From contig JASXTE010000001.1 in assembly GCA_030280995.1 (NCBI GenBank), positions 33,413,700 to 33,477,699 on the forward strand: 64,000 nt of DNA, in the 5' to 3' direction. The first letter of the stretch is position 1. The number at the start of each line of letters is the position of its first letter. The DNA comes from Hemileia vastatrix (lineage: Eukaryota; Basidiomycota; Pucciniomycetes; Pucciniales; Zaghouaniaceae). Below, piece by piece: positions 3,194 to 63,999 of the stretch. Both the position numbers and the translations under genes were made by a program. Under the pieces are notes generated by a model. It was not told the DNA's origin. It saw only the letters and a list, made by a program, of their open reading frames with translations, and did no database searches.

Positions 3194-3199
3194 AATTCA

Positions 3200-4143: not shown

Positions 4144-4160
4144 AAGAAATTCAAAGTTTT

Positions 4161-4713: not shown

Positions 4714-4727
4714 AATCTAGAAGTCCT

Positions 4728-10020: not shown

Positions 10021-10027
10021 TATTTTC

Positions 10028-10840
10028 CTATCCCAACACTTCAGAGGTGGTTCTTCCACCTTGCAGTTGTTCTTCTTTAGGAGCAATGGAATAAACTGAA
10101 TTTTCAGAGCAAATATTGAATTTTCCTTTCCAATTCACGCCTATAGTGAAGCAACTATTTTCAGGATCTAGTTTAATGCCAAATTTGGTCAATAATTCAT
10201 TGCCAATAATAAACCTATCACTAAAATTATTATTATCCATTATTACAAATTCACACACTGCTAAAAAATATACATTATTATATTTAAATAATATGGCAGT
10301 TTTGTATTTGCCAATAGGATTTAACACTGAACCAAAACCCCTCCAGTTCTTTGTCTGTACAGGTTCTAATTTATCCTTATACTTAATATCTAGTTTCATT
10401 AAAGTGTTAATATAAACTACACTACCTGAAGCCCCAGTGTCAAGAATGGCATTCATTTCTTTTCCACATATAGTAACAGGCGCTCTAATAGGTGTTATTT
10501 CATAATTATCATGAGATACATCTTTGATATTTTCAGCTTCTTTAAAGGAAGTTAAAGATGTATCTGTATGAGGTATTACATCATTCAGGATCATAATATC
10601 CTGTTCTAATAAATATATCTCAATTTCATCATCACTGTAAGAAATGTTACTTTTACAATCCTCACTAGATTCCTCCTTTTCATCTTCATGATTACTTTGT
10701 TCAGAATCTTGTGATTTTTCAATAACATTTATTCTTTTCTTACAAGTATGAGTTTTATCCCAAGGTTCATTACATTTGTAGCAAGTGTTATTTTCTTGTC
10801 TTTTATGGACAAGGGGAGCTGAAGGTTTTTTCTTCTCCAC
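10028..10840 (-). pseudogene. A2 nucleocapsid knuckle and aspartic protease
   Basis: One open frame of 270 codons. It opens with the zinc knuckle CYKCNEPWDKTHTC, has an acidic linker (NHEDEKEESSEDC) and then the protease with AILDTGASGSVVY, the same layout as A1 2511-3193 but without A1's stops. This shows that knuckle and protease were translated as one polyprotein in the ancestral element. Confidence 0.85.
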
Positions 10841-12285: not shown

Positions 12286-12299
12286 GGTCTTTTTCCATT

Positions 12300-12683
12300 T
12301 CACCTGTCTCTCCTTACCTTTCCCCTGTAAGTGTGACTTCTGGAGCCCTGCTGTTGATGAATGTTGTAGTTTTGGGCATACCAGTCCCAATTCCATTTTC
12401 TTACTGTAATCCTTTGCTCCTCCTCTTGGACTGGAGGTGTAGCTCTGCAATTGTTGGGTGCAACTGTTGTTGGTTGAGCTTTTATTTCCACTAGAGCTTG
12501 GTTGACTTCTATGAAACCCTGTGCAGCTCTTTTCTTTATATTTTTCATCTGGTCTACTATGTTGTTGACTCTTATTGTTAAGGTGTTTAGCAGAGTGGAT
12601 AGGGAGTGAATTTATTCTTGTAAAGTATTTTTTTTCTTTATTGATACTTGTTTTAAAAGTCTTTCCCTTTCTTCCAGAGACAT
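12300..12683 (-). pseudogene. A2 ORF1 coiled-coil/basic protein
   Basis: Starts MSLEERERLLKQ at 12683, has one in-frame stop near 12610, then RVNNIVDQMKN... through the aromatic tail RKWNWDWYAQNYN and a basic end (SHTYRGKVRRDR) closing at 12300. Comparison with A1 shows this is the ancestral frame. Product unknown; see the A1 ORF1 entry. Confidence 0.55.
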
Positions 12684-12789
12684 CTGTGGAGTGTTGCTGT
12701 TGGTGGGAGAATCCTGGCCCTCCATTTGAATGTCCTGTAACAGGTCTTAAGCTATAAGGGTTTGCCTTACTACTGACAATATCATTGTT

Positions 12790-13400
12790 GTTGTCTTACA
12801 TTTTTATGTGGAATTTAAATCAAAAACTTGAAATTTGAGATATTATAACCTCAAAAGGAGTTTTATCAGTATTAATCAATACCACTGAAGATAGTTTTAT
12901 TGCTTACTTTTAGGTATTAAGTGAACTTATTAGTGCCAAAAATTAAATATGCTTTTATGTGGTCACTTGAATTAACTGGTCTACAATATGTAGCAGTGTT
13001 TTTATATTTAAAAAAGAAATTTGTCAGTAATATTCTTTCTAAGTATCAAATTAGTTTTAAAAACCAATAAAAAAGGGATTAAGAGTCCTGTTTTTAAAAT
13101 AAAACAATTAATTAATTTTTATTATCTGGTTTATTATCTGCAAAGATCACAAAATTAGTTGGTCTATTGACAAACTCCCACTAATGACAATTTTATGTTA
13201 AATTAGTTGTAAAATTGTTGATTCAATATCACAATTTTATTATATAACAAGGCTTCTTTTTCTGAAATTACTATATAAGTGACCCCAAACTGTTGTAATT
13301 ATCCAAATATTTCTATAGGGATTTTATTTACTTGTAGCCTCTCTTTGAATTTTTCTTACCAGAAGATAACCAACAGAATTCTTGAGGAAAGGTCCACAAT
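12790..13400 (-). other. A2 leader with candidate primer-binding site
   Basis: Untranslated stretch between 5' LTR and ORF1, matching A1 1-500. Immediately after the LTR end (13401) the minus strand reads ATTG then TGGACCTTTCCTCAAG, so a primer-binding site beginning TGG near 13396 is plausible. The complementary tRNA was not identified. Confidence 0.5.
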
Positions 13401-27239: not shown

Positions 27240-27786
27240 TGTTGTTGTTGTTGTTGTTGTTGTTGTCAATTTTGACTTCTGGGAAGTGATGGATTGAAAG
27301 AGTCCAGTGGTTCATTTTTTTTCTAGTCAATGTTGTTTTAGGCCCTCCTTCTTTGGGAGTTGAAGGAGGATTTTATGACGCAGAAGCAGAAATCCATGTT
27401 GTTACGGAAACCCATGTGGGTGCAGAAATTTTTGGTGCGGAAATACATGTGGAAGTGGAAACATGTATAGGAGAGGTGCCACACCCAAGCCTAGAAAGGA
27501 GACTTGGAGCAGTAGAAGGAGTAGAAGTAGGAATTGTTTGAGAGTTGGTAGTTGGGTTATTAGAAGCAGAATTTTAGATTTGAGGAAGAGATCTTCTGGA
27601 TCTTCTGGAAGGTACTGAAGGGAGAGAAGAATATCCAGGTCCATATTCTGCAGATCTAGTTGGCAATCTGAATATGTATTTGTGGGATGATGAAAGAGGA
27701 GGAATAAGAAGTTGTGAATCCCTTTCAAATTTTCTTTTTCTGGAATTTTAAGGATCACAGGCTTTGTAATAGCAGTTGGAGTCCAT
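27240..27786 (-). pseudogene. B element second antisense reading frame (basic, Ser/Pro/Thr-rich)
   Basis: On the minus strand an ATG at 27786 opens MDSNCYYKACDP, then a stop, then NSRKRKFERDSQLLIPPL. RSAEYGPGYSSLPSVPSRRS, a second stop and a Ser/Thr/Pro-rich stretch (NSASNNPTTNSQTIPTSTPS) follow, ending in poly-Asn encoded by a GTT microsatellite (about 27236-27266). One frame stays open for about 180 codons with three stops, two of them TAA positions where Gln would fit. RKRKFER resembles a nuclear localisation signal. Function unknown; it may be a downstream exon of the antisense gene at 28536-29185. Confidence 0.4.
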
Positions 27787-28058
27787 GGATTAGGAAATAA
27801 AGGTGAAAGATCTTCTTTTCTGGATGAAAAGTTTTCAATAATAGTCTCTTGAAGCAATAAAGAATGGGAGTTTTGTGGAAGACATTGTGAGATGGAAAAC
27901 TGGGATAAACAAAACAGAAAAGAGGTTAAAAAAAGGTGGATGTTGGAGTGGAATTTCGAATATCAAGATAATAATGAAATTTTTGTATGATGCATTCAAC
28001 AAGGAGACTTTAAACTGTTGGGAAGTTCATCAAGACCTTAAGCTGAAAATTGTTGGAC

Positions 28059-28535: not shown

Positions 28536-29185
28536 TTAAATTACAGAAGAGAATGAAGAGGTGAAACCAAAATTTTCAGCATTGGCTTTGAATTGTTTGA
28601 TGAGGTTTTTCTTTTTCTCAATGTCATGTGGATCTTTAGCAGGAGTGGATTGAAAATAGTTAAGTAAAAAGTGTTTTTTTTGAAAAGAGTTTTGTTAGAA
28701 TCTTGTTTTGATGTTTAGTATAGGATTAAGGGTTGGTGGTTCAATGGTTCCCATATTATCATCATCACTGTCAGAGGCAGGATTAACTGTAGGGTCATCA
28801 GTAATACAGTCATTATGAAGAAAATTCAATTCATGATCTTAAAATTGTTTATCTACCATCAGATGGACAAGGGATGGTGGAACTAGAAGTTCTAATAGTG
28901 GTGGCACTTCTTTTGGGGGGTTTATTTTTTTAATTAATCTGGGTATCAGAATTGAAGGCCTTGATCTTTTGGTTTTAGTAGAAGATAGACCAGGTTGTGG
29001 TGGGAAGAGACTTTTGAAGAAGATAATGGACCAGGTCTAAAGCAAGTCTTCTTTCTGGATTGGCACACATTACCGGAGGTTTTTTATGGATGAGCTGGTG
29101 GTTTTATGGTGCAGATAAGATTATTATCAATACAGTATTGGAAAGGACTCATTTCTGAGACAGATTTTGGAATAAAGTAGCACAT
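28536..29185 (-). pseudogene. Antisense Zn2Cys6-like gene, B copy
   Basis: Minus-strand frame from ATG 29185. A cysteine cluster keeps the spacing of the E and D copies: (C to F)-X2-C-X6-C-X12-(C to G)-X2-C-X6-C, with YCIDNNLICTIK and NVCQSRKKTC visible. After a frame change near 29000 it continues with KTKRSRPSILIPRLIKK and an acidic part (DPTVNPASDSDDDNMG). The C-terminal block TPAKDPHDIEKKKNLIKQF aligns with the tail of the E copy, and the frame stops at 28536. Total size (about 216 codons) is close to E's 222. Two TAA stops. Probably a DNA-binding accessory protein, by motif only. Confidence 0.55.
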
Positions 29186-29235: not shown

Positions 29236-30456
29236 TGTGGTCTTCCAACATTGGCAGTGGTTTTTGTTTTGTTATTTGATACTGTTTGTGGATTTCTTAA
29301 ATGATATTATTTTATAAAATATGGGTCTATCTGGGTTTAGGGGTGAATAGTTGGACTATTGGTATGTGGTTGTTAACATTGAATAGCCCTGGCTTTTCTC
29401 TATATCTCATTTATCAATGAAATTTCTCATATTCTAAGTTTAAAGGGGTCTATTTCTCATTCTTCATTTCTAAAAGATAGCTTTTTAATTTAGTTTTTTG
29501 TGTTTTTTGGGCTAAATTAAGTCTTAGAGATAAGTGCTTAGTACCATTAGATAGACCTAATTTGGCTCTATATTTCATTCAAAATGTTGTTATTGCTTAA
29601 TTTTTTGGTCTAAAGGTTTTAGTAGTTGTAGTGAATTTTTCTAAGGTAAATGAGGTATTTTGGCTCAGATGTGGGTGCCTGCATATACAATTGGAATATT
29701 GGGGAGGTGCTTGGGCATGGTTTTTATGCATTTTAGAGGTGGAATTGAGAAATTTTGGCTGGGAGCTGGCATCTACATATTGGAGAAGAATGTTTTGGGG
29801 CATCTCTAACCTAGATACAGCCATCTGGTAATTAGATCACTGTTTCTCACTCAGTTTTCACTGTTTTTTTCCACAATTGGCTGTGTTTGTTGCAAGGTTA
29901 ATTCTTCATTTAACTTAACTTTGGAAACTGTTTTTTCTGGTGTAGCTTTTCAACCTGCATCAGGTATTATTACTGTTTTCTGTGCAACAAGTGCATTAGG
30001 GGGTATCAAAGTTAGAAATTTTTAATTATTTAAAAGGTATTTCACAGCACAAAAAGAAAGCCACAAGCATGACATTAATTCTCAGTAAAAAGATGTTTTG
30101 GGGCACAAGATGGCATACCTTAAAAAATAATCATAATTGATTTGGCAGAAAAAAGAGGTATTTTGAAATGGAAGATTTCTAACTTTTTTACCCCCTATTG
30201 TGTCTCTGGTTTCTGGTGTGGATTTTATCTACCTTTCAGGTTTTGGTTCTTTGGTTCTCAGTGGTCTTCTATTGGCTACTGTTTTGGATTTTCAAGAAGT
30301 TAAGAAGTTTTTCGAAGGGGTATGGTAACAGTCTTCAATTTTCTGTGGAAAATAAATCACACCTGGTATTTATCAAAGGGAAAGGGGATTTTCTCTCTGG
30401 GATTTCCCAAAATCCCTTGGTCAAGGCCTATAACTAGTACAATAGGATTTCCTACA
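29236..30456 (+). repeat. B element 3' LTR
   Basis: TGTGGTCTTCC... to ...GGATTTCCTACA, matching 17168-18208 over its length apart from a 197-bp MITE inserted at 29999. Without the MITE it is about 1.02 kb, close to the 5' LTR. Confidence 0.85.
29999..30195. mobile_element. 197-bp MITE with TA target duplication
   Basis: Left end GGGGGTATCAAAGTTAGAAA; the reverse complement of the right end is GGGGGTAAAAAAGTTAGAAA. The MITE is flanked by TA on both sides (29997-29998, 30196-30197). The 5' LTR lacks it: AACAAGTGCA runs straight into CTGTGTCTC at 17940. No coding capacity. Confidence 0.85.
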
Positions 30457-34796: not shown

Positions 34797-35440
34797 TTAA
34801 AACAAATAATCTCTTTGAAATCTTTCTACATTAGCATCAAAGCTTTGCATTAGTAATCCTCTCTTCATAATTTCTTCATTATTATTGGCTTGAGTCTTTG
34901 AAATTAAGCTAAAAAATTTTGCTTCATATCATCAAAATATCTAAAAAGAGGTATTAATAAAATTTAGGATAATGATTTATATAATCAGTTTGGACCAGGC
35001 CAACATCATCTGTATTGGTTTTTTCAATAGCTTAAATAAAGGAGAGTATAGTTATTAGGTTGATTTAAAAGAAAAAAATTAAAGAAATGAACTAAAATTT
35101 GGAGCCAGGAAATAGAGTTTCAGAAAAACTAAAAGAAGAAACTGGAATAATATGATCATGATCTTTAGAATAGTGTGGAAGATGATGATCAGGATTAGGT
35201 TTTTTGGAGGAGGAAGCTGTTTCGGCCCTAATATTTCTAAAGAAAGTTTGAATTTTGGTTAGTGTCTTTTTAGGTATAGTAGTATCAGGTAGAGCTTCTG
35301 GGCCTGTGTAGAAGTTTGTTCTGGAAGGAATTATTGAACAAATAAATTTGACAGGCAGTTCTTCCAGGAAGTCCAGGTTTAGAAATTAAGCAAGGAACCT
35401 GGTATTTGGTGCATAATTTGCATGAGACAGATAGATCATT
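34797..35440 (-). pseudogene. Antisense Zn2Cys6-like gene, D copy
   Basis: Minus-strand frame opening at 35440. It has CKLCTKYQVPCLISKPGLPG then RTAC, that is CX2CX6CX12C with the fifth Cys changed to Tyr and the last lost in a short deletion. The Pro/Ser-rich middle (IPSRTNFYTGPEALPDTT, IPKKTLTKIQTFFRNI, ASSSKKPNP, PVSSFSFSETLFPGSK) is nearly residue-for-residue like E. An acidic piece (TNTDDVGLVQ) and the tail NNNEEIMKRGLLMQSFDANV follow, then TAA at 34797. Two or three stops and slips. No intact ATG at E's start position. Confidence 0.6.
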
Positions 35441-35576
35441 TTATGAAATTTTATAATAATGATAATGAAGATGAAACTGAATATGTGTATTGGAGGAAAT
35501 GGTTAGAGTGGATGAAGAGAGGATAAATGAATGATTTATCAAATATGCAAATTTAAGAATGATGACATTCTTCATT

Positions 35577-41640: not shown

Positions 41641-42069
41641 TGATAACCAAAAAAAGAACCTTTTAAAATAAAAAAAACAGGAAAAAATACAAAAATAAAA
41701 ATAAACAAAAATAAAATAATTAGCAATCAAAAAATTAAAAAAAATGAATAAAAAGACTTACCTGAAGAGATGAGATGATAAAATAAGTGAAACATAATTT
41801 TTTGAGGGATTTTTGAGGAGAGGATGAAACAGATATGAGGGATGAATGAAAAAAGAAACAATGAAAAATTATGCAATTGCTGAAAATATGCGCTTTCATG
41901 TTGAGCTGGTGAATTAAAACAAATGGGAAATCAAAAAAAGAGATATTCACAGTAAATTCAAAAAAAATTAATATGCAAAAAAAAACACCAACCCAAGTGA
42001 ACAAAGAAGAAAAGTTGAACATTTGGAGAATATGAAAAAAAATTAAAAGGGTTGTGTTTCAAAATGTTG
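41641..42069. other. Harbinger internal non-coding stretch
   Basis: AT-rich, no gene. 41865-42069 matches 62620-62820 of the other Harbinger copy (GCTGAAAATATGCG, TTTCATGTTGAG), so it is the region 3' of the transposase. Confidence 0.6.
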
Positions 42070-43260
42070 GAGGGTTATTTGAATAATGACAGAGTGTAAG
42101 CCAGTGGAAGGAATATTTTGTGATTCAAGGGAGGGCAGAGCTGACACAGGTTCAGGATTCTATTCTTCATAAAGATCATTACACTTATCCTTTAAATCAG
42201 CTAGGATATTGTTGAGTATAACACAATTCATTATACAATGATTTGCAGTTTTGATTTCCATTTTTTTTTGAAATTGGATTCTGAGTTCCCAGAGACTAGA
42301 AACTCTTCCCTTTAAAATCCCAATAACATGTTCAATTTGTACTCTTTATTTTGCAAGATGATAATTAAAAGATTTTTTTGGGTCATTTTTTAATTTTTCA
42401 CCTCAGAAAGCAGGTATAATATATTTTTCACTTGCATATGCTGAGTCTGCTAGTAGGTACTAAGATTTTTCAAATTATTGGTCAGGATTTTGAGAAATCT
42501 TTATTCATTGGAGCATGGAAGAGTCATGAAATGAGCCAGGACAGCCACTACAAATAGCAATAAACTTTTTATTGATATCAACAACAAGTTGAATGGAAAT
42601 AGAGAATATAGGAAGAAGATAAAAAGTTAGTTCATGAAGAGAAACTTGAGAAAAATTTGAAGAAAGCTTCTTTTGCAATCAAAATAATTGTTTCCATCAT
42701 GAGCAGGCTTTTGGCTCAATGGTATAGTTGTACCATCAACAATACCTACACAGACAGGGAGACCTTCAGCTTGCATTACTTGATAGGATTCAAGTCGCTG
42801 TTGTGGAGTTGGCCAAGCAAGTGTTTGAGACTTGAGAGAAAGGATAGCAATCATGCAGCACTTGGTGTATAATATGACAATACCATATCTTATGGTAAAG
42901 AGATTATCTAAACATCTTAAGGCAGAACAATTTCTATTTGAACCAAGGAGACATAGTGTGACAGAAAGTTGAAAGGCAGGTTTACACTGTGTTTTATAGG
43001 AATTATTATAGAAGATAGGATGATTGGAGATGAGTTGAGAAAGTTTGAAAAAGAAGCAGGAGAAGTTTGAAAAAGTTTTGTGAAGTTTAAATGAGGAATT
43101 TCAAGAATTTAGGCAAGATCATATCTGGGAACATGATAAAGATTTGGCCCCCTTTGAATGAAGTAACACTTTTTGAAAAGAAAAGACATATAAGCTAAAG
43201 TGTCTTACAAACCAGATTCAGAATCAGAGTCAGTGGCTAAAGCTAAAGTGATAGCATTCA
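42070..43260 (-). pseudogene. Harbinger transposase, decayed
   Basis: Minus-strand homolog of 62791-63999. Clear pieces: RLESYQVMQAEGLPVCVGIV, then DGTTIPLSQKP (first catalytic Asp), LADSAYASEKY (second Asp) and IEHVIGILKGR (Glu). More than ten stops and slips. The direction and position next to a SANT-like gene match the autonomous Harbinger layout. Confidence 0.8.
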
Positions 43261-50321: not shown

Positions 50322-52380
50322 ATGGATGCAGACAAGAAAATTGTGGTAAGTTCTAGAGCTAGTATTTCTGATTTTAAGAAATTTATCTAATTAAATATAA
50401 CATAGGACATAGTCATGCAGGAGGCCAAACCCTCAGAGCAATACAACTCACCAAGGATAGCAGAGAACCTTCCACCAGGTTTGAAAATTAAGAAAAAATC
50501 AGCATGTTTTTCTCAGTGGTGAACAACCATGAGTGAGAGTGGAAAAAATTGAAAGCATGGCTGGAGATTTTGGAAGAAAAAGTCATGAAATAATGAACAA
50601 AAGGTAGATATATTTCAAAAAGAACAATTAAGTACTGACCAGCCCATGAAATCCCTCTACTCATCAAGGAGATTCCCCACCATCAGACATGAAAACAGTG
50701 TAAAATTTGAAATGGAAACGGATAAATACAAATTGGGACAGAATCCAAAATAAAATCCAGGTATTACAGGTTCCTTAACCTAGTCTTTCAAGGCCTCCTC
50801 CACCACAAGTGAGCCATCCCCATCCCTAGAAAGTAAAGAAAAATGAAAAAGGCAGTATGAATATAAAAACTTGGTAAGTAATACACCAAATAAATTAGCA
50901 GGTATTAATACTGAAAAAGTTTTTTAGGTGAGAGTGATTTGGAGGAGGAAATAATTAAATATTATAGACAATCATCAGAAGCTCAAGTTTTAAATACTTT
51001 TGATGATGGATTTTCTTATATTTAATGATCATGTAGCTCTATTATTAAATGAAGACAATAGTACTGTGGTTAAGACCCTGAAGAAATATCTAAAATAATA
51101 AATGATTCTTATTCAAAACTTGTAAGAAATCAGTTAGATGTAAGTTGAGTAATAAACCTTAGAATGAATAGTTTAATTCATGAATTTGGTAAGAGATTAA
51201 ATCAATTAGAAATTTCTCATGAATTAAGTATTGAGATAACTGATAATGTTGTTAAAATATTATGAAGTAAGGTCTATCATAAGATAAAATCAGCTGTTAA
51301 GGATATGAATAAACAGCTTATACTTTGTAAAAATGAAAACCAGTCTATAAAAGATAAACTTTTTAATATGAACAAAGAAATAGATATTTTGAAATCCCAA
51401 ATTGCTTCAATCTCTAAAAAATTATTAGTTAATGAAAAGAGAAACACTTTATTAACTCATAATATAAATGAAACATTATATAAAATTCCATTATTTAGAT
51501 TAGCAGAAAACAATTTTAATTTATCTTATAAATTGAATAAAGAAAAAATTAATTATATCCAAAGGAAATTTTCAAAAGTAAAAGAAAAACAATTTTTGTT
51601 TGATAATGTTTCAGATAAAAATTTTCTAGAGAAACATTCTCAGAACTCATTGAAAGAGAATCTAAGTGGATATATTTCAAAAATCTCAGAGTTTTTAAAT
51701 AATGTAAAAGATATTAAAAATCCTGATTGTAATCATCATCAAAAGAATTAACCAAATTTAAATCAATAACCTATTTTTGATGGTTATACTGCTTCAGACT
51801 GCCAACATTTCATCCAGAGAATTGATAATTTAAAATCATCATACAAATTACCAGAAAAAGAAATTACTTCTAAATTAATTTTTTTACTTATTAATGTTTC
51901 TTTAATGTGGTATGAATCTATTCTTATGTATGAAGAAGAGTACTCATGGCAGGAATGGAAACAATTAATTGAAAAAAGTGTGGTGTTTCAAAATTCAAAT
52001 TAGCACAATTGAGGTTGTATGAGTAAAGTCAATATTTTTTAAAATTTTCTGAAAAATCCATAGTCTTTTTAATGAAATTATAAGAAATATTGAAAGCTAT
52101 GGATCAAAAAATTTATTTATACTACCAAACACATTAAGAGATCTAGTGGTAGCCAGATCTTAAAATACTTATAACACTTCTTCTTTTATTAATATCTGTA
52201 GTGATGTTCTATTAAATCATAGATATAAACCAAGAGGAAATTTACAAAAGTATCATCAGCAAAATTACATTGAAAAATCTGGACATAAAACTCCTGATAA
52301 GATTGTAAAAGCTTCTGCTATTATTTCCCCAAAGAAATATTCAACAAATAATTGTGTAAAATGTGGAAAGTAAAGGCAGA
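50322..52380 (+). pseudogene. gag: F gag
   Basis: An N-terminal segment from MDADKKIV (50322) is poorly conserved. A 148-codon open part at 51305-51751 (coiled coil, KDKLFNMNKEIDILKSQIAS) corresponds to A1 1490-1830. Capsid (FDGYTASDCQHFIQRIDNLK, QEWKQLIEK) follows, and then a ruined zinc knuckle (NNCVKCGK) near 52350. Frames broken many times. Confidence 0.7.
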
Positions 52381-52559
52381 AAGGCAATTTTTGAGACAAA
52401 AAATAAATTTTTTGGAACAAAGTGGGCCTTAAAATCTGAAGATTTTAATGAATCATCAGATGTTAAAAGTGATATATATTTCTTATGAGAAAGAAAGTGA
52501 CATCTTTGTATTAAAAAATTATATCCAATACATAGATAAAATTTTTCTACAATGGATGG

Positions 52560-53030
52560 AATATTGTCTAATGTTGAAGATGCAAAAATAATCACTGATA
52601 TTACAGAAAATTTTATAGTCATTACACCAATTAAATTTGCTTTTCTAATAAATGGAGAAAATACAGAGGTGATATTAGATTCTGGAGCTGGATGAAGTAT
52701 TGTATCTTTAGCATCTTTAAAGAAAATAGATAATGACTATGAGAGAAAACTAGAAACTTTTTCTTCAGGAAATCGGAGAGGATATGGACCAGTATTGAAC
52801 CCTCTAGGTAAATATTCTACTTCAGTTTTCTTTAAAACTAAACATGGGTATGTAAGAGCAGTGTGTAATTTTATTTTTATGAAGAATAATAATTTAAGTA
52901 ATTAGTTTATAATGGGAAACAACATTCTAAACAATTTGGAATAAAATTAGACCCAGAAAATCAGTGTTTCACAATGGGAAAAACTGTTAAAAGAAAATTT
53001 AAAATAGTTTTTACTTCACCAAATTTTTAC
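52560..53030 (+). pseudogene. F aspartic protease
   Basis: EVILDSGAG-stop-SIVSL carries DSG as active site with a TGA just after. GYGPVLNPLGKYSTSVFFKT and NFIFMKNNNLSN match A1 protease. Confidence 0.75.
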
Positions 53031-53269
53031 TCAAATATTAATTCTTGTAATAATTTAATTTGATTAAAAGGTAGGATTTCTGAAGAAGTGAATCATCTTG
53101 ATGATGATACTTTAAAATTATCTTTTGGTGAACAATTGAATGAAGAATAAAAACAAGAAATAATGATCTTGGTGAAATTTTTTCTGGTGTCTTTTTCACA
53201 TGGTAAACATGAGTTAGGATTTGTATTCATTAATGAGATGAAACTAAATTTAACTTTTGAATTGGATGG

Positions 53270-53990
53270 GATTCTTTCTAGTTTGGAAAAGAAGCCTTAT
53301 CCTTCTTCTCCTATAAAAATTTAAGATATAGAGGATAATATCTTAGCACTTTAAAAAAAGAATATCATTAAAAAAGTGGATGTTACCCCTAAATATTGTG
53401 TAATTTCACCTGTATTTATATCTTATGAAAAAGATAAAGCAAGAATATGTGGAGATTACAGAACATTAAACACCTATACAGTTGATGAAATTAATCTCTT
53501 ACCAAGAATAAATACAATACATGCAAGCTTACAGGGATCAAAGTATATCAGCTGTCTACATGGCAATAAAGGTTATCATCAGATTTGTGTTGATAAATTA
53601 TCACAAAAATTTTTGTTGATTTCTACTCATATTGGAGTTTATAAATATATAAAGATGCCTTTTGGACCAAACAATGCACCTTCTGTGTTTCAAAAAGTAA
53701 CAGATAGTACTTTCTATCAAGAAATCATTGAAGGATGGTTAATGGTATACCTAGATGAAATCATTATTTTTTCAAAAACATTTGAAGAACATAATAATTC
53801 ACCTATCAAAAGTCTTTGAAAAGATGGATAATTTTAACATGAATTTACCTTTAAAAAAATGCAAATTTAGTTTTTATCCTTTAAAAGTTCTGGGACATGT
53901 GGTATAAGGGTTTAAAATTTGTGTTGATCAAAACAAAATAGCAGCCATACAAAATGTTGGAGTGCCAACTTCTTTTAAAAAAATTAAATC
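53270..53990 (+). pseudogene. pol: F reverse transcriptase, catalytic residues lost
   Basis: TPKYCVISPVFISYEKDKAR, CGDYRTLNTYTVDEI, then LHGNKGYHQI where A1 has LDGNKGYHQI (first Asp changed to His), MPFGPNNAPSVFQ, and VYLDEIIIFSKT where A1 has VYIDDIIVFSKT. Two of the three catalytic Asp are changed, so the enzyme would be inactive. Confidence 0.85.
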
Positions 53991-54484
53991 TTTTCTGGGT
54001 ATGTGTGGTTATTATAGACAGTATATAAAAAATCACCATATAATTGCTGCACCTTTAACAAATCTATTTAACAAAGATGTTTCTTTTATCTGGACTGATG
54101 AAAGACAAAAATCTTTTGAAACATTGATAAAATGTTTAATTTCAGCACCTATTTTAGGATTATCTCATTTTTCTAAACCTTTTGTGTTGTATACAAATGC
54201 AAGTTTTCTATGATTAGGATCTTCACTTCATCAAAAGCAATTGGTGAAAGGAAAAAATGTTAGAAGTGGTTATATGCTATATTTCAAGAACCTTGAGACC
54301 AAGTGAATCAAAATATGGTGCCACTCAATTGGAGGGTCTATCAGTAGTAGGAGCTTTGGAAAAGTTGCATTACTATGTAGATGACCAAAATTTGAATTAA
54401 TTACTTATTTTAGTCCTTTATAATCATTATTGAATTTAAAAATACCTAACAGACATTTTAGAAAGACTCATACAGTTGCCTTTC
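53991..54484 (+). pseudogene. F RNase H, cut by E
   Basis: SFLGMCGYYRQYIKNHHIIA, LYTNASFL (Asp changed to Asn), KYGATQLEGLSVVGAL, then IPNRHFRKTHTVAFL. It ends at the E LTR edge at 54485; A1 continues LEYRGRM at this point. Confidence 0.8.
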
Positions 54485-55558
54485 TGTAAGCAGAATCCAA
54501 GGGAGTTGGATAAACTGAAAAAAACCCAGTCCCTTTAAGTAAATAAGGAGTTCACAATTATCCAAGATATAACCTCTACTTGATAAGAAATAACCAATAA
54601 GCTATTTGTTATTAAAGGTGTTGAGATGTAAATTCTGTGCTCTTTATAATGAGGTTTAAAAACACAACATTGAAGTTGTATTTAGAAAAGTTATTTAAAT
54701 GATTGAATAATATATTTTTATGAAGCATTTATTTTTATGATTTAGTTTTTATAATCAGATCCCTGGTGATGAGACCTTTAAAATGGTACCCTATAAGTTA
54801 ATATCTATGATGATGTTTGAATTTATTGTAATGTAATGTAATAGTGTTATATTTATAAGGGTATTACAATTTTATAATTTGTTTTATAAAGTAAATTAAT
54901 GATTGTTAAAATATGTGTAGTTGTTGTTGGTTGTTGTTCAATAGATGGATCTCTCCCTGTATCTAATTTCAAGTCTAAAGGTATTATATCAATATTGTGT
55001 CATGTGCCCTACTTTCTCTTACCTGAGCATTCTGGAGCTTGTCCCGAGCTTGTCTGGAGATCTCCAGAGTTTTTTAAGAGATTTCACAGATCTTTGGACT
55101 CAATTAGAACCTTTAAAATACTAAAAAAAAATCTTGAAGAGTTACAGATGATAAAGCTACTTCTCCTTTATATTCCATTATGATTCTTGTAGCCTGCACA
55201 GCCCTATCCACGTAGTAAAAAATTATCAAGGTTAAGCAAATTATGAAAAATCAAAAATACTTTATAAAATTATTAAAAATAGTAGAAAAATAGTTAAAAT
55301 TCCAGCAAAATTCCCAAAGGCTCTTGAGATTCCTGAATTCAATTTACATACATTTTTAAAACTATACTTGCATTTCCTGCATGGTAATTATTTGTTGAAT
55401 CTTGACCTGTAAAATCAACCCTTTTTACCCACTTTTAATACTTAATTTATTTAATATAACCATTTTGAAATTTGATTGGCCTTTTCAATCTCAACAATCA
55501 TTCACCAAAAATACTTTATAATAAACTTAAGTGCCATACTAAACCTTTGACTACCACA
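54485..55558 (-). repeat. E element 3' LTR (D type, 1074 bp)
   Basis: Minus strand TGTGGTAGTCAAAGG at 55558 to GGATTCTGCTTACA at 54485, the same termini as D's LTR. Preceded by polypurine tract GAAGGGAGGA (55559-55568). Confidence 0.8.
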
Positions 55559-55568
55559 TCCTCCCTTC
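55559..55568 (-). promoter_or_regulatory. Polypurine tract of E
   Basis: GAAGGGAGGA on the minus strand immediately before the LTR; one base different from B and D. Confidence 0.75.
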
Positions 55569-55708
55569 AATGAAGAAGTTCCCCATTCTTTAAATTTGCA
55601 TAATTGATCAAACAAATATTCATCCTCTCTTCATCCTCTTCAAACATTTGTCTTAACTAGTCCAGAAAAATTTCAACTTTTTATTTTAAAATTAATATCA
55701 TCATCAAC

Positions 55709-56374
55709 ATGTCATCAAAAGACCTTGCTTACCCATGTGAACTTTGTGCCAAATACCAGGTTCCTTATCTAATTTCTAGCCCTGGTCTTCCTGGAAGAAC
55801 TGCCTGTGGTCTTTGCAGGCTTAATAAAATCAATTGTAATCATCCAATTATACCTTCCAGAACTGACGTCTATACTAGACCAGACACTCTTCCTGATCCT
55901 ACTGTTCCTAAAAAACAATTATCAAAAATTCCTACCTTCTTTTGTAATATAAAGGCCAAAATAGCTTCTTCATCTAAATATCCCAATCCTTTTATGCCAG
56001 TTTCTCCATTCAGTTTTTCTGAATAATTATTTCCTGGCTCAAAAAGTTAGTCTTTTAATTTTAATTTCAAAATTCTCCTACTAATTCCAAATCTAACTAC
56101 CATCTCTCCATACTCCTAAGATATTGAAATCACCAATACAGATGACATTGGCCAAGTGCAGAATAATTAAATAAATCATTATCTTTTATTTAATAGATAT
56201 CTCTTTCTTGACGTTTGTGATGATATGAAGCGTAAATTTTTAACTTTTTTTCTGGAAACTCCTGTCAATAATACTGAAGATTTAATGAAGAGAATAATTT
56301 TGATGCAAAGCTTTGATAATGATCTTGAAAGATTCCAAAGAGATTTTTTATTTCAATTGTCCCCTCTTATTTAA
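55709..56374 (+). pseudogene. Antisense Zn2Cys6-like gene, E copy (best preserved)
   Basis: A single plus-strand frame of 222 codons from ATG 55709 to TAA 56372-56374, opposite to the element's own genes. The first 106 codons are uninterrupted: CELCAKYQVPY, then GLPGRTACGLCRLNKINC gives CX2CX6(C to Y)X12CX2CX6C, the spacing of a fungal binuclear zinc cluster. Next come IPSRTDVYTRPDTLPDPT, PKKQLSKIPTFF and PVSPFSFSE. Four in-frame stops follow, but the same frame keeps TNTDDIGQVQ, DVCDDMKRKF and TPVNNTEDLMKRIILMQSFD, NDLERFQRDFLF. All blocks recur in D, and the zinc cluster and tail recur in B. Likely a DNA-binding regulator of the element; function is inference. Confidence 0.6.
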
Positions 56375-56507
56375 AATTTTAATACCTTGATTATTTTTAT
56401 TCTTTTAGTGCTGATGATCAATTTTGTCTTGTTGATTTTAATCCTTTAAATTCATCATATATTTTGAAATAAAATTTATAAACCGTATTCTCCTTGTGAT
56501 GATTCCA

Positions 56508-56714
56508 CTACTGAGAGCAAGGTTTGAATCCCTTCATAATCTCCTCTACCAGTCTCCATCCCTCTTCACAGCATGAGAGAGTGTGCCTCCCTAATGAGCC
56601 AAATACTTTTGATTCCATTCCCACTGGGCTTCCCCCTGAGCCAAATACTATGATTACATTTTTTCCATAGGGTCCTCCAAGCTTCCTCCTAAATAGGCTA
56701 CCAAAGAGACCCAC
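56508..56714 (-). CDS. Conserved small sense frame in E 3' region
   Basis: MGLFGSLFRRKLGGPYGKN, then VFGSLG, TLSCCEEGWRLVEE and an SQ end. It pairs with the D frame at 34363-34680. An extra VFGSGGSPVGMESK arises from an internal duplication. Upstream the CCDAES block is also shared. Hypothetical. Confidence 0.35.
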   Translation of the reverse strand: MGLFGSLFRRKLGGPYGKNVIIVFGSGGSPVGMESKVFGSLGRHTLSCCEEGWRLVEEIMKGFKPCSQ

Positions 56715-57108
56715 TAAATTCCAACTCCTATCCTTCTTCTATGATTCAGCATCACAACATTCAAATAATTTTCCTACCCTTTAAGATAAATCCTAATTTT
56801 ATATCATTAATCATAATTATCCAGACATTTTTAGCACCTTTATTCTTTAACTTTTAAAAACCTCCACAAATAAACTTTAAAATCTCCAACTTCTTTTAAT
56901 CCTAAATAACTTCATTTAATGATATCTCCATTGTTAAAGTTAGATGCACTGTTATCATTAATGACTGTTTTGTCCAAATGAGTGAGTAACAGTTTTAGTA
57001 CCAATGAACCAGTGAGAAATTAAAAATTACTGAATTGAATATCCCTCTTTATCAAAATTTCCACCTAAAATTCTTGAGATCCAAACTTTTATTTGATTAC
57101 CAGTTTTT

Positions 57109-57433
57109 AGTCTTGGTGGACCAAAGTGAACGTAATTTGCCAGTTTAAAGTCATAGGGGACCAATTATCGAAATTTTTCTGTTTGTTTCCAGTTTAAGGT
57201 CTTAGGAGACCAAATCCTATAGTTTATTTCCAGTTTTAGGTCATAGTGGACAAAAGATTGTGTCACTTGTATATTTTTTTGAAATTTTCTTCTTTAATAT
57301 TCAGTTTTAAGTCTTGATGGACTAAAAGATCCAATAGAGTTCCAAAATCTTTTTAAGTATTCAGTTTAAAGTGTTGACATACTAACCAATCAAAAAGTCT
57401 TGAAAATTAGCTAGTTTAAAGTCTTACAGAACT
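57109..57433 (-). repeat. Mini-dyad array in E
   Basis: Plus-strand starts 57109, 57149, 57198, 57239, 57310, 57370 and 57420, plus 58019 outside the array. Each is preceded by CCAGTTTAA-like sequence and reads AGTC or GGTC, six bases, GACC or GACT. Reverse-complemented it is the unit of B and D. Confidence 0.65.
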
Positions 57434-58384
57434 AACAAAATGTCTTGAGGTGAATTCCAGTATTTGTTGAACATTGGTAATCCACGTCTTTTGTTTCAAG
57501 ATATAATAAAAGAAAATAAAATATTTAAAATAATAATTATAAGAAAAAGAAAATAATTTTTTATTTTTGAAATTTGTAATTTTTAAACTTAAAATTTATA
57601 AAAAAAATGTCCTAAAATTTGAAAATTAAATTTAAATATATATAAAAAATCCCCCCAGTCATTTGATGAGCCATACCCCTGAAATCAGGCCCAAATACAA
57701 GTGCACCTTGATGTGGGATACACAAGTAAGAAATTAAAAAAAAGGACATAAATTAATTTCAAAAATTTGAAAAACATAATAAAAAAATAGAAATGATCAG
57801 TGGGTGGGCTCCCTCCAATTTATAAAAATGATTGATGACCACCAGTGATCATTATCTCTGAAAAAATTAATTTTAATAATTTTAAAGTGAAAATAAAATA
57901 AAATTCTAACATAAAAATTCAAAAATAAAATTTCATAAATTGAAAATAAAACATAAAAAATCCTTGAATCTGACTTTGAATTAGTGTAATTGTTTGAAAT
58001 AGTTTTGATCCAGTTTATAGTCTTATTGGACTTTCTATTTAAAAAAAACAAAGCAATGATTTAACTAGAAACAGGTAAACTATGGTAACAAACATTGTGG
58101 GGTAATTGGGTATAGAGCAGCCAGCCCATAAATTCCCCCCAAACTTTCCAATATTAAATTTAGAAAGTTTACATGTGAACTCTTCTACCAAAAAAAATTA
58201 TATTCCAACATAATCCTTCACCACAAACTTCTAACATTTGAATTTATTGATCAATAATTTAATGATAGTTTTAGTTTACACTCTCTTGTGGAGTAAATCT
58301 TCTTTAAACAATAATAGAGTATTTTATCCTCATTTTGGAGGAAATCTTCTAAAAAATAGTGTGCAGCTTATCCTAATTTTGGAG

Positions 58385-59735
58385 TTAGACCTTGGCACAC
58401 CTGGTGCCCCTAGGATAGAACCGCTTAACTTGATTGGCAGCTACCCTCTTTTTAAAACAACTCCAACCAACTCTCTTAACACGTATGAACCTCCAGATAC
58501 CTGTTTTCTAACTCTGTATGGTCCATTCTACCCCACTGAATTTCAAACTCGTATTATACATCAAGACTGTATCTCCAGTTTTCAAAGTATTCTGTAACCT
58601 ATGAGCCAACCTCTTATCCCAATATTTGACTGACTGATTCTTAATATTTATCATTTTTGAGTATTCCTTTTCTAGAGTTTCTTCTTTCTTTTCTAACTGA
58701 ACCATTCTTGCACATAATAACTCTTCAGTAGTTTTGACCATATCCCAATCTACTCCAAGATATGATTCAGCCTCTAAATAAACTGGTAAAACTGCTTTCT
58801 GTCCAAAGAATAGTTTGTATGGGAATATCCAGTTGTTCTTTTGGAAGTGATTCTGTCAGAAAATAAAACTAATTTTAAGTAGTGCTGCCACTTTTCACCA
58901 CTTGATCCACACACTTTAACCAAAGCATCTTTAATAATTTTATGCCCTCTTTCTACCATTCCTTCAGCTTCTAGATAGTATGGGGTCGCTACCCTAACCT
59001 TTGATCCAATTTTGACATAGCCTCTTTAAACCCTTTCTCAAATTCAGGACCTCCATCAACTGTTACCTACTTCATCACTCCATACCTATATACCCAATTG
59101 TTCATCAAAAATTCTTCCACATTCCTGGAATTCAAATTTATAAGAGGCTCTGCCTCTACCCAACCAGATAAGTCATCTGTCTACAATAAATTACTTATAT
59201 CTCCCCTCTTTAATATGAACAGCATCTAAACTAACCCTACCAAAAAGAATATTTTCACCAGTTGCATGTCCAGGTTCTTTTGGACTTAAATAACTTCTCT
59301 CTTGACATTATTTTTATGACTGAACCAATTTTTTAACCATAAAAATATATCAAAAATTTGTATAATGGTTTATCCAACTCCTCTATGCCCAAGATCTTCA
59401 TGCAATGAATTCATAACCAACTCTTGCCCTTTATTTTGAGTAATAACTACTTGAGGATTTGGATACTTCCTCCTCATTAATCTTCCTCTGGAGAGATAAA
59501 ATGCCAGTGACTTCCTTTTGATAGCCATCCACTCATCATTATCACTTTTTTCTGGTCTTTCTAACTTTAATAAATATTTAACCATTTTATAATAAAATCC
59601 AGTCTGTCTCCAGGAATCATCTCGAAAATACATTAATATTATTTCAAAGGGCACTTCCCTATCTCCTAAATCACCTGCACATGAATGAGCCAATAACTTT
59701 AAATCTTGACTTTGCCTTTTATCATACAAGATTTT
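58385..59735 (-). pseudogene. E integrase (B/D type)
   Basis: Begins in frame with YDKRQSQDLKLLAHSCAGDL (aligned to D at 31050), LKLERPEKSDNDEWMAIKRK, RRKYPNPQVVITQNKGQEL, and HHCC start LHEDLGHRGVG. The core keeps VTVDGGPEFEKGFKEAMSKL (second Asp intact) and a KLKEWWKEGIK-like Glu region. The C-terminal half has EKEYSKMINIKNQSVKYWDK, RLAHRLQNTLKTGDTVLMYN and ends FYPRGTRCAKV at 58385. Stops and slips near 58860, 59040 and 59290. Confidence 0.8.
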
Positions 59736-60173
59736 TTATATTTCCATCTTAGAAATATCATTACCCATAATAAACCAATTGCTTAAATTATCATTTTGCA
59801 TGACAAAAAATTCACAAATAGCTCTGACAAAACCACCATTATATTTGAAGAATACAGAGGTTTTGTATTTGCCAATAGGAATTAAGGTAGAACCATAACC
59901 TCTCCATTTTTCAGAAGTTATAGGTAATAATTTACTTAAATAATCCTTATCTACTGAAGCTAAAGACTTTTCAGAGACTACACGTCCTCCAGCACCAGAG
60001 TCAAGAGCTACATCAACATTTTTACCATTAATGATAACAGGTGCTTTCAAGGGGGATATGGCTACAGAATTGTTAGAAATATCTTTAATTATTTCAGCAT
60101 TTTCCACTGAAGATAAATTCAATACACATTCTTCAGATATATTATCTAAATAATGGACATCCTGTTCTAACAT
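59736..60173 (-). pseudogene. E aspartic protease (family A type), 3' truncated
   Basis: APVIINGKNVDVALDSGAGG contains the active site DSG; SEKWRGYGSTLIPIGKYKTS and WFIMGND match A1. It breaks after GNDISK at 59736, where A1 continues LLTKFGIKLDP, and integrase-type sequence follows. Confidence 0.85.
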
Positions 60174-61134
60174 TAAAACATCTTTAACAGAGTCATTGCC
60201 ATAGGAGATATTACTTTCACAATCACTAGAAGAATTATTGACATCAATTTCAGCTTCATCAGTGTCTTCATTTTGTTCAACAAGATGAATTTTCTTGTAA
60301 CAGACATATCCCTTTTTCCATGGTTTGTTACATTTATAACAAGTATTTGTTGCATATTTTTTAGGTGCAACTGGGGCAGAGGGTTTACCAGATTTTTCTG
60401 GGAGTTTTGTAGAAGGTTTATTCTGATCATTATAAGATTTACCAATGTAATTCTTTGGTTCATATCTATGGTTGAGTAGTACCTAATTACAGATATTAAT
60501 GAAAGAATAATTTTCCCTTACATGCTCAGTTCTAGCCACAATCAAATCTCTAAGAGAATTTGGTAATTTATACAAGATTTTATCTCTCCAAATATCATAA
60601 TCCATCTTTGGATCAATTGCTCTTAGGATTTTTGTTACTTTCATAAGAAAAACAATGGGCTTTTCAACAGAGGAGGATACATATTTAGTATTCTCATACA
60701 GTCTTTGCTGAGCTAACCTGAATTTTGAACCACCAAACTGATTCTCAATCAAGGATTTCCAATCATTCCATGTATAATGATTGTTATCTAAAAGGACAGA
60801 TTCATACCACATCAAGGCTACATTGGAAAATAAAGAAATTAGCTTAGAAAAAATTTCCTCATCAGGTAGTTTATAAGATCTCTTTAAATTATCAATTCTT
60901 TGGATAAAGTGTTGCCAATCAGAGGAAGAATCACCATCAAAGGTAGGATATTGGTCCAACTTAGGCCAATTTTTCTGACTACTGGGATGGTCCATTTTTT
61001 GGTTTGAATTATTCTTCAATAACAATTCCTGAAGTTTAGCCAGGTGTTCAGAAATTTCATTATTTACAGAAACAGCTGGTGCATGACCATCACAAGATTT
61101 TTTGCTAGTAGCAAAAGATTTTACAGACTCATTA
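60174..61134 (-). pseudogene. gag: E gag (capsid and knuckle, family A type)
   Basis: Capsid: NWPKLDQYPTFDGDSSSDWQ, LPDEEIFSKLISLFSNVALM and IENQFGGSKFRLAQQRLYEN, uninterrupted for about 220 codons, then a TAG at 60481. The knuckle reads CYKCNKPWKKGYVC: Tyr replaces the zinc-binding His. The 5' part is missing because a Harbinger inserted at 61135; the first codons (LTPPNE) run into the transposon end. Confidence 0.85.
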
Positions 61135-61410: not shown

Positions 61411-62415
61411 ACATTTTCAATATTTTGACCAGGCATGTTTACATTCTTTTTTACTTATTTCTTCTACTTTTTAATCTTTTTTCTTGTTATGTGCCAGTTT
61501 CATAATGCCTCCCAGACATTCCAAATCTCAAAAGGTAACTCAAAAATCTGCTTCGTCACAAAAGTCTCCTCGTAAAGCAAGGATTACATAGAAAAAAAAT
61601 CAGTGACTTTTTCTATTACTTACAACTGTTTTTACAGAATTGAAAACTATGTTTCAGCTAATATTTTATGGAAGTGAACTCTGTTCTTCGCCCGAAGAAC
61701 AGAGTTCATCCTCCTATTTTCACATTCTGTTTGCACCAATCTCCAACATTTTCAATATTTTGACCAGGCATGTTTACATTCTTTTTTACTTATTTCTTCT
61801 ACTTTTTAATCTTTTTTCTTGTTATGTGCCAGTTTCATAATGCCTCCCAGACATTCCAAATCTCAAAAGGTAACTCAAAAATCTGCTTCGTCACAAAAGT
61901 CTCCTCGTAAAGCAAGGATTACATAGAAAAAAAATCAGTGACTTTTTCTATTACTTACAACTGTTTTTACAGAATTGAAAACTATGTTTCAGCTAATATT
62001 TTATGGAAGTGAACTCTGTTCTTCGCCCGAAGAACAGAGTTCATCCTCCTATTTTCACATTCTGTTTGCACCAATCTCCAACATTTTCAATATTTTGACC
62101 AGGCATGTTTACATTCTTTTTTACTTATTTCTTCTACTTTTTAATCTTTTTTCTTGTTATGTGCCAGTTTCATAATGCCTCCCAGACATTCCAAATCTCA
62201 AAAGGTAACTCAAAAATCTGCTTCGTCACAAAAGTCTCCTCGTAAAGCAAGGATTACATAGAAAAAAAATCAGTGACTTTTTCTATTACTTACAACTGTT
62301 TTTACAGAATTGAAAACTATGTTTCAGCTAATATTTTATGGAAGTGAACTCTGTTCTTCGCCCGAAGAACAGAGTTCATCCTCCTATTTTCACACTCTGT
62401 TTGCACCAATCTCCA
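61411..62415 (+). repeat. Three 335-bp tandem repeats with internal palindrome
   Basis: Units start at 61411, 61746 and 62081 (ACATTTTCAATATTTTGACC) and are essentially identical; the third differs by one base near its end (CACACTCTG). Each contains ATGCCTCCCAGACATTCC, the start of the SANT-like protein (MPPRHSKSQK), ending at TAG, and a perfect 32-bp palindrome GAACTCTGTTCTTCG-CC-CGAAGAACAGAGTTC (61676, 62011, 62346). The repeated 66-codon open frames are by-products. Confidence 0.92.
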
Positions 62416-62790
62416 TCCCTTTCAATTCTATCAACACATGCTTGTCTTCCCTCCCCATGCCTTTCGCTATCCTCCCAGCCCCATTGTATGCCATCCTCTT
62501 TTGATCCCCATTTCACCCCTCTCAACCTCTCCCAGACCCTTTTCTTCATTTAAAATGCCTCGGAACCCTTAATCTTCCCTTCCAACTCTTTCCCAACCTT
62601 TGAGTGACTGAAAAAATATGTGTTTGCTGAAAATATGCGATTTCATGTTGAGTTGATGAAAGAAAACACAGAGAGAAAAAAAATAAGACTTTAACAGCAA
62701 ATTCAAAAACCAAAAAAATATGCAAAAAAATTTTCCATTCTCAGTGAATAATACATGCAAATTGATAATTTGAAGAGAAAGAGAAAAAAA
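62416..62790. other. Harbinger non-coding stretch
   Basis: C/T-rich to 62580, then AT-rich sequence matching 41865-42069. No gene seen. Confidence 0.5.
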
Positions 62791-63999
62791 TTAAAATTGC
62801 GTTGAAAAATGTTGGAGTGTTATTGGAAGGATTTTTGACCTTATACTAGTTGATTGAGAAATAGAAGTGTTGGATATAGTCGGAGGTGAATCAACTTGTT
62901 CATCTTCATACAGCTCTAACCATTGATCTTTGAGGTCAGCAAGTAGGTTATGAAGTATAGTGCAACACAGAATCCAGTTGATCACCGCCTCCATTTCAGA
63001 TTTATTTCTAAGAGGACTTCTTAATTCCCTTAAACTAGAAAAACGACCTTTCAAGATTCCAATAGAATGTTCAATACGTACTCTTGACTTTGCCAAATGA
63101 TTGTTGAATTTGGCATTTTGACTGTCTTCTGAAGCTGCTCCCCGAAAAGCAGGAAGTACATACTTTCCATTCACATAAGCAGAATCTGCAAGAAGATACT
63201 GATTTTCATCAAAGAATTTTTCAGGTTCATTTGAAATATGCATTCTTTGGAAGACGTAGGAGTCATGACATGAGCCAGGATAGCCAGCGAAGAATGATAT
63301 AAATTTTTTGTTTACGTCACATATAAGCTGAACGTTAATTGAATATCTATAAAGAAGATATATTTGTTTGTGTTAGTTTCAAGGAGGATGAAAGGAGTTA
63401 AAAATAATCTACCTCTTTTTACGGTCAAAGTAATTGTTTCCACCTTGACCAGGTTTCTGGCTCAAAGGAATAGTAGTACCATCAACAAAACCAATACATC
63501 CTGGAAAGCCCTCTGCTTGCATAACCTGAGATGATTCAAGTCGCTCTTCTTTTGTTGGCCAGGTGAGAAGTTGAGATTCCAAGGAGTTGATGGCAGTGAT
63601 ACATCGTTTGGTATAAGTGTTAACTGAACCATACCCTAAATCAAAGACATTTTCTAAACGTTTCAAAGCGGCTCCATTACCATTTGAACCCAAACGACAT
63701 AGTGTGATGGCCAATTGAATTGAAGGATGTCGTTGTTCTTTTTGAGAATTATTTTGAAATATGGGATGATCCTGAATAAGCTCAAGCAATTTAAGGAAAC
63801 ATTCCTGAGAAGTCCTGAACAGCTGTCTAAAACTGGGTGTAGATAGGTTAAGAAGTGTTTGGATGATGTACTTGGGGGTATGAAGTACTTGAGGCTTTCT
63901 GGGAAGAAGGTAACGTTTCCTGGCCATTTTTGATAAAACGACAAAATCTTCTTCTAGATCAGAATCGGAATCAGAGTCGAAGAGCAGTTCAAGCGCCAT
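62791..63999 (-). CDS. Harbinger transposase, two exons, apparently intact
   Basis: Exon 1 is 63999-63413 and exon 2 is 63346-62791, separated by a 66-bp intron (GTAGAT...TTATAG on the minus strand). Coding length 1143 nt, 380 residues, no stop. The start is MALELLFDSDSDSDLEEDF, an acidic N-terminus, followed by a helical DNA-binding part. The DDE_4-type nuclease has DGTTIPLSQKPGQGG (first D), LADSAYVNGKY (second D) and RVRIEHSIGILKGRF (E). The intron falls just after FDRKKR, so the two catalytic Asp are on different exons. It would cut and paste the element together with a SANT-like partner; that partner is only a repeated fragment here. The decayed copy at 42070-43260 is its homolog. Confidence 0.88.

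What the first reader, a model, noticed from the sequence alone, without database searches (positions are those of the whole stretch)
55709..56374. Antisense gene with a Zn2Cys6-like cluster shared by three retrotransposon copies
Opposite to gag-pol and just inside the polypurine tract, E (55709-56374), D (35440-34797) and B (29185-28536) each carry a reading frame of about 215-222 codons. Seen directly: cysteine spacing CX2CX6CX12CX2CX6C, with 5, 4 and 4 of 6 Cys kept and different ones lost in each copy. The Pro/Ser middle is shared by E and D (IPSRT, LPD, PKK, TFF, ASSSK, PVS-FSFSE, LFPGSK) and a tail of the type NNxE-MKR-LMQSFD is shared by all. Differences between E and D in the cluster fall often at third codon positions. 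Known: this spacing is that of fungal binuclear zinc-cluster DNA-binding proteins. Inference: an antisense-encoded regulator of the element, not described to my knowledge.
Basis: partly seen in the sequence, partly recalled or inferred. Interest (0 to 1): 0.87.

Follow-up and report, generated by a model that had tools for sequence, protein, structure and literature searches.

The report
Spliced antisense zinc-cluster gene in retrotransposons
Several old, high-copy families of jumping elements in this large genome carry, on the strand opposite to their other genes, an extra intron-containing gene for a small protein with a zinc-cluster-like domain that natural selection had preserved.

Summary
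In three families of LTR retrotransposon (window copies B, D, E) a gene lies between pol and the 3' LTR on the antisense strand. I compared 94 further places from the host genome (39 E-, 18 D-, 20 B-family DNA hits, 17 protein hits). Between D and E families that frame was under purifying selection: dN/dS 0.29 (exon 1) and 0.30 (exon 2), against 0.43-2.07 in the other five frames; within E it is 0.89/0.72, within D 0.62/0.55. Two of E's four internal stops, shared by most copies, lie in a phase-1 intron. Its usual length differs between families (75; 61 or 64; 70; 59), mostly not by multiples of three, while both exon frames stay conserved. An intron antisense to the element's own RNA can survive retrotransposition. 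The protein has six cysteines, CX2CX6CX12CX2CX6C. Pfam Zn_clus matches, above its cutoff in 3 of 6 natural copies, with the halves in swapped order: apparently a circularly permuted Zn2Cys6 cluster. Antisense accessory genes are known in plant elements and in Botrytis Boty; my paper searches found neither this protein nor such an intron. A role as DNA-binding regulator is inferred. Transcription is untested.

The parts
55709..56045 (+). E copy: exon 1 of the antisense gene (ATG; zinc cluster; Pro/Ser-rich middle)
   Evidence: codon-position bias; ATG in 22 of 41 aligned rows
55736..55837 (+). E copy: six-position cluster CX2CX6CX12CX2CX6C (third Cys reads Tyr in E)
   Evidence: Cys in 33, 31, 28, 32, 15 and 33 of 41 rows; Pfam Zn_clus in natural copies
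56046..56120 (+). E copy: phase-1 intron GTTAGT...TAAG, 75 nt, holding codons 114 and 137
   Evidence: GT 26, AG 40 of 41 rows; divergence jump; length modulo 3 differs between families
56121..56356 (+). E copy: exon 2 (acidic TNTDD stretch, tail of the MKRxxLMQSFDxDxERFQRD type) to the family stop codon (CAA in E)
55559..55570 (-). E polypurine tract, sense strand
   Evidence: similar in B and D
54451..55558 (-). E 3' LTR
   Evidence: maps to an LTR pair 84% alike in locus pair L048/L049
58368..59735 (-). E integrase region of pol (decayed)
   Evidence: Integrase_H2C2 3.5e-15 in the homologous D stretch
35097..35449 (-). D copy: exon 1 (frameshifted)
35031..35096 (-). D copy: intron remnant (66 nt; 61 or 64 in 12 of 19 D-family rows)
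34797..35030 (-). D copy: exon 2 to stop codon
35587..36648 (+). D 3' LTR (outer end approximate)
28857..29185 (-). B copy: exon 1 (possible starts 29185 or 29152)
28787..28856 (-). B copy: intron GTAGAT...ACAG, 70 nt
28536..28786 (-). B copy: exon 2 to stop codon
17168..18201 (+). B element 5' LTR (ends approximate)
29236..30449 (+). B element 3' LTR (outer end approximate)

Best explanation
An old clade of LTR retrotransposons carries an accessory gene on the antisense strand between pol and the 3' LTR. Shown: a two-exon frame with a phase-1 intron; a protein of about 200 residues with an N-terminal six-cysteine cluster, a basic Pro/Ser-rich middle and an acidic-then-charged tail; purifying selection on that frame between families; later decay of copies. 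Shown by sequence comparison, with weak single matches: the cluster is a Zn2Cys6 binuclear cluster with its two halves in swapped order. Inferred: the gene is transcribed from a promoter in or near the 3' LTR, whose edge lies 150 bp upstream of the ATG in E. The antisense mRNA is spliced; the genomic sense RNA cannot be, because there the splice signals are reversed, so the intron survives each round of reverse transcription. The protein enters the nucleus, binds DNA through the CDxCRxKKxKC half, probably at the element's own LTR or PPT region, and tunes element transcription or integration.
For: Codon test, net D x E divergence: exon 1 c1/c2/c3 .049/.021/.211, exon 2 .060/.035/.154, intron .222, 3' flank .272. 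dN/dS D x E .29 and .30; other frames .43-2.07; within D .62/.55, within E .89/.72. Repeat among three B subfamilies: exon 1 c3 net .10-.17 against c1, c2 .02-.06. Intron: 75 nt in 32 of 40 E rows, 61 or 64 in 12 of 19 D rows, 70 in 9 of 10 B1 and 59 in 5 of 7 B2 rows, same place, phase 1 in E and B, exon registers kept. Cluster: Zn_clus 30.1 (L013), 27.4 (L024), 26.3 (L014) bits against cutoff 21, two stretches each, best stretch residues 31-45 on profile 1-15; the first halves alone match profile 17-34 in L013 and L024 (E .05 each), and L018's best stretch is there too. Ppr1 (1pyi) is hit in the same swapped order (E .065). Genome: 5782 first-look candidates, the 150 scored all matched.
Against: No transcript, protein or binding data. 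Zn_clus passes its cutoff in 3 of 6 selected E-family copies, 0 of 6 B- and D-family copies, 0 of 3 window copies; 1 of 7 rows of A2 had no match. B- and D-family copies show only one half each, though in the permuted register, and one B-family copy with all six Cys shows none. L014's first half alone gives no match. Each half of the Ppr1 hit is weak. No homologue in 5.8 billion proteins, though fungal coverage there is unknown to me. B's 3' flank is less diverged than the intron (.05-.11 against .16-.28) and exon 2 c1 in B reaches .13. Most copies are broken; GT is kept in 26 of 41 rows and, by my reading, 9 of 19 D-family rows. The fifth Cys is Phe in 15 of 41 rows. Sense frame +2 also has low dN/dS (.43/.52). 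The model of E exon 1 was useless (pLDDT 40).
Confidence: 0.66

Rival explanations
1. The conserved frame is a by-product of coding on the sense strand (an env-like or pol extension).
For: Sense frame +2 has dN/dS .43 (exon 1) and .52 (exon 2) in D x E pairs, the lowest of the other five frames.
Against: That frame shares its third positions with the antisense frame, so signal leaks in. Antisense position 2 is the most conserved and position 1 next, the order expected of antisense coding. Stops in sense +2 run 3.2-10.5 per 100 codons against 1.0-1.5 in the antisense frame.
Confidence: 0.02
2. The protein is a selected accessory factor but not a DNA-binding regulator: a nucleic-acid chaperone or packaging protein acting on element RNA or cDNA through its cysteine cluster.
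For: CX2C-rich small basic proteins act so in retroviruses (recalled); no DNA binding was tested.
Against: Cluster halves match the DNA-binding Zn_clus profile and, weakly, Ppr1, including the CDxCRLKKIKC face.
Confidence: 0.18
3. The antisense RNA itself is the active product (dsRNA that feeds silencing or anti-silencing) and the protein is secondary.
For: Proposed for plant antisense ORFs in PMC7264820 (passages read).
Against: Selection acts on codons and spares the intron, which an RNA role does not need.
Confidence: 0.07
4. A host transcription-factor gene was captured once and is a passenger.
For: It has an intron and a host-type domain; retrotransposons can transduce genes (PMC7264820, passages).
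Against: It is present in three diverged families and several subfamilies at one place, with selection continuing between them. Capture as origin is possible; passenger status is not.
Confidence: 0.03
5. The internal stops are true ends or are read through, and there is no intron.
For: In E the intron is 75 nt, a multiple of three, and in frame.
Against: Common D- and B-family lengths (64, 61, 70, 59, 56) are not multiples of three, yet exon 2 keeps its register; GT-AG ends sit at the jump in divergence.
Confidence: 0.03

Closest known systems
Antisense additional ORFs of plant Gypsy elements (Grande gene23, RIRE2, Retand TRP28 proteins)
   Same: [quoted passage not shown] proposed nuclear or DNA-binding regulator (passages of PMC7264820 and PMC11963269)
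   Different: Different host kingdom and protein. The word 'intron' does not occur in either main text, though PMC7264820 asks that spliced antisense transcripts be looked for; here the domain is Zn2Cys6-like and the gene has an intron
brtn of Boty-like elements, Botrytis cinerea
   Same: Antisense gene in a fungal LTR element (title in the reference list of PMC8365987; text of PMC7264820)
   Different: I did not see the original paper, so its protein and intron content could not be compared
HBZ of HTLV-1
   Same: Antisense gene with a promoter in the 3' LTR; nuclear (passages); spliced form recalled, not from a call
   Different: bZIP protein of a retrovirus (recalled); no shared domain known to me
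Fungal Zn2Cys6 regulators (Ppr1, Gal4 type; Pfam PF00172)
   Same: Six Cys in two CX2CX6C halves with a CDxCRxKKxKC face
   Different: Order of halves swapped; small protein without a large regulatory region; encoded in a retrotransposon

Membership tests
Zn2Cys6 binuclear cluster (PF00172) | Six cysteines, CX2CX6CX5-12CX2CX6-8C (consensus recalled) | tested here: met
   CX2CX6CX12CX2CX6C; Cys in 15-33 of 41 rows per position and all six in 7 of 41; all six in 2 of 21 B-family rows, near-identical to each other
Zn2Cys6 binuclear cluster (PF00172) | Pfam gathering score | tested here: inconclusive
   Above 21 bits in 3 of 6, 0 of 6, 0 of 3
Zn2Cys6 binuclear cluster (PF00172) | Basic half first, second half after it | tested here: not met
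   Profile 17-34 precedes profile 1-15 in the protein; so a permuted relative, not filed as an ordinary member
Zn2Cys6 binuclear cluster (PF00172) | Zinc and DNA binding | not testable with these tools
   needs protein
Antisense additional ORF (aORF-3R) of LTR retrotransposons | Between pol and 3' LTR, antisense to gag-pol | tested here: met
Antisense additional ORF (aORF-3R) of LTR retrotransposons | In most copies and conserved like other element proteins | tested here: inconclusive
   Conservation met: dN/dS .29-.30 against .57-.69 for integrase, D versus 4 E-family rows. Share of copies not measured: searches started from the gene itself
Antisense additional ORF (aORF-3R) of LTR retrotransposons | Own antisense transcript | not testable with these tools
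   no RNA data
brtn of Boty | Sequence homology to brtn | not tested
   brtn sequence not available here

The most novel reading that the evidence does not exclude
A retrotransposon clade made its own transcription factor: a circularly permuted Zn2Cys6 protein, encoded by a spliced gene kept on the antisense strand so that its intron survives reverse transcription. Splicing would then act as a strand check, letting the protein come only from nuclear antisense transcripts of integrated copies, and the factor would switch the sense promoter in the LTRs.
Probability: 0.35. Interest if true: 0.88.

Novelty: new variant of a known kind. Interest (0 to 1): 0.76.

Why it matters
Antisense genes of LTR elements are often argued from open frames alone. 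Here codon-level selection, repeated in separate families, together with an intron whose length changes out of frame while both exons keep theirs, gives strong evolutionary evidence for a translated, spliced antisense gene without RNA data. A permuted binuclear zinc cluster would widen what is known of that fold, and the system offers a place to ask how elements regulate themselves in very large, repeat-filled genomes.

Tried and rejected
Sense-strand coding, chance open frame, passenger gene and readthrough were tested and disfavoured. Protein database searches gave nothing for the gene or for E's gag-protease frame, nor did viral contigs. Folding E exon 1 alone gave pLDDT 40 and was not searched against structures. 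One element of about 13 kb with LTRs 84% alike was found among five regions fetched (L048/L049), so that insertion is old; young copies were not sought. No listing or abstract start that I saw named a Zn2Cys6 or intron-bearing antisense retrotransposon gene. Of papers I read passages of PMC7264820 (and its section 5), PMC11963269 and PMC8365987; the rest only as listings.

Full report
What was checked. The three frames were translated and compared. E has four internal stops. D matches E in three pieces in different frames. B matches in its tail (against E, L012 and L018, 2000 shuffles each: 0.0005, 0 and 0 as high; tail HMM E 6.8e-5) and in its cluster (0 and 0.001 for two rows; cluster HMM only E 0.42). 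All three share the polypurine tract next to the LTR. In E the LTR edge is at 55558 and the ATG at 55709.

More copies. The window lies in a 747.6-Mb assembly. DNA searches gave 42 matches from 40 scored candidates for E (1670 first-look candidates), 40 for D (1447) and 40 for B (4739). I fetched all 39 other E-family places, 18 of 39 for D and 20 of 39 for B. The protein search scored 150 of 5782 candidates; all 150 matched, and 77 of 150 (my hand count) had no stop in the matched stretch. I fetched 17 of these, chosen for long open frames or high score, so not a fair sample. D and its 18 fetched relatives form one clade, support 1.0.

Selection. Within the E family variation is nearly flat over codon positions, with dN/dS .89/.72 for exons 1/2; within D it is .62/.55, so D keeps some older, selected differences. 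Between D and E families it is .29/.30, with c3 changing far more than c1 and c2; intron and 3' flank diverge like or above c3. The five other frames give .43-2.07. Net of within-family differences, dN/dS is roughly 0.1 (my subtraction). As a yardstick the integrase of the same elements gives .57-.69 in its sense frame (D versus four rows; a fifth, L056, matched only 120 bases and was not paired). The B family repeats the pattern in three subfamily comparisons, one row (L087, near-identical to L086) dropped. Exon 2 c1 in B is less clear (.03-.13), and B's 3' flank is only .05-.11; both count against a simple picture.

Intron. In 41 aligned rows GT is kept in 26 and AG in 40. Divergence between D and the E-family is .29-.48 in the windows inside the intron and .17 at the start of exon 2. 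Length is 75 in 32 of 40 E rows, 61 or 64 in 12 of 19 D rows, 70 in 9 of 10 B1 rows, 59 in 5 of 7 B2 rows, 55-58 in 4 of 4 B3 rows, and 86-92 in 6 of the 17 protein hits. By my reading GT is kept in 19 and AG in 20 of 21 B-family rows, and in 9 and 15 of 19 D-family rows. In L077 exon 2 is one frame on from exon 1, in L085 two frames on, as the lengths 70 and 59 require. The phase is 1 in E and in B. This is hard to explain without splicing. With exons joined, 2 of 41 rows and 3 of 17 further copies read 199-201 codons before a stop. One of the first two (L012) keeps GT and AG but starts ATT; two of the last three start at ATG, but none of those three keeps GT. D- and B-family copies other than D were not tested for this. 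So near-complete frames exist, but none that I tested was intact in every signal.

Why antisense matters. A sense intron would be spliced out of the genomic RNA and lost at the next reverse transcription. An intron whose signals lie on the other strand is invisible to the spliceosome there. This follows from established retroelement biology (recalled) and is inference for this element.

Protein. Natural copies L013, L024 and L014 score 30.1, 27.4 and 26.3 bits against Zn_clus (cutoff 21), each in two stretches of which the tool places only the best (residues 31-44 or 31-45 on profile 1-14 or 1-15); the other three copies of that call score 16.5-19.7, and L018's best stretch is residues 8-24 on profile 17-34. 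Cut alone, the first halves of L013 and L024 match profile 17/18-33/34 (E .051.046), that of B-family L094 profile 17-35 (E .0096), that of L014 nothing. So the half that resembles the start of the profile comes second. The profile of seven rows finds one PDB chain, Ppr1 (E .065, weak), again with both halves swapped. B- and D-family rows fall below the cutoff, one without any match; the five matches keep the permuted register. The two halves of a Zn2Cys6 cluster are related by approximate two-fold symmetry (recalled), so a permuted chain could still bind two zinc ions; this is inference. Function as a regulator rests on the domain, on analogy with plant elements and on position near the LTR.

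Elements. E has gag- and protease-like frames next to it (59739-60998, weak Pfam matches below cutoff), but at 59754 similarity to other E-family copies ends, so E appears truncated there and abuts another family's gag. D has an H2C2 integrase (3.5e-15). Assignment to Ty3/Gypsy is by general layout and is not tested.

Known ground. Antisense ORFs between pol and the 3' LTR are reviewed for plants and noted for Boty (PMC7264820, passages and section 5; PMC11963269, passages). Retand elements encode TRP28 proteins antisense, suggested to regulate. So the kind is known; the zinc-cluster protein, its permutation and the intron did not appear in my ten searches of this open-licence library, which lacks most subscription papers. 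A similar cluster in mushroom proteins is a faint recollection of mine, not checked.

Noticed in passing
62600-63900 (-), second copy 41850-43050 (-): DDE_Tnp_4 transposase (8.6e-27) with only four stops in the frame; a more decayed relative lies 20 kb away.
   Followed up: partly
27405-27962 (-): A second open antisense stretch of 186 codons in the long region between pol and 3' LTR of element B; no Pfam match at E 0.1.
   Followed up: partly
3-5430 and 8030-13307: Two inverted copies of another element, about 86% alike; related DNA (65-70%) at 51740-54462 and 59757-60981.
   Followed up: no
54455-60981: E sits between a + strand fragment ending at 54462 and a - strand gag-protease-like fragment starting at 59757, a nested or rearranged set.
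   Followed up: partly
61411-62426: Three tandem copies of a 335-bp unit, about 99% alike; related DNA lies inverted beside an E-family copy in L052.
   Followed up: no
E-family copies, codon 36: The fifth cysteine reads Phe in 15 and Cys in 15 of 41 rows, which looks like a subfamily change rather than decay.
   Followed up: no
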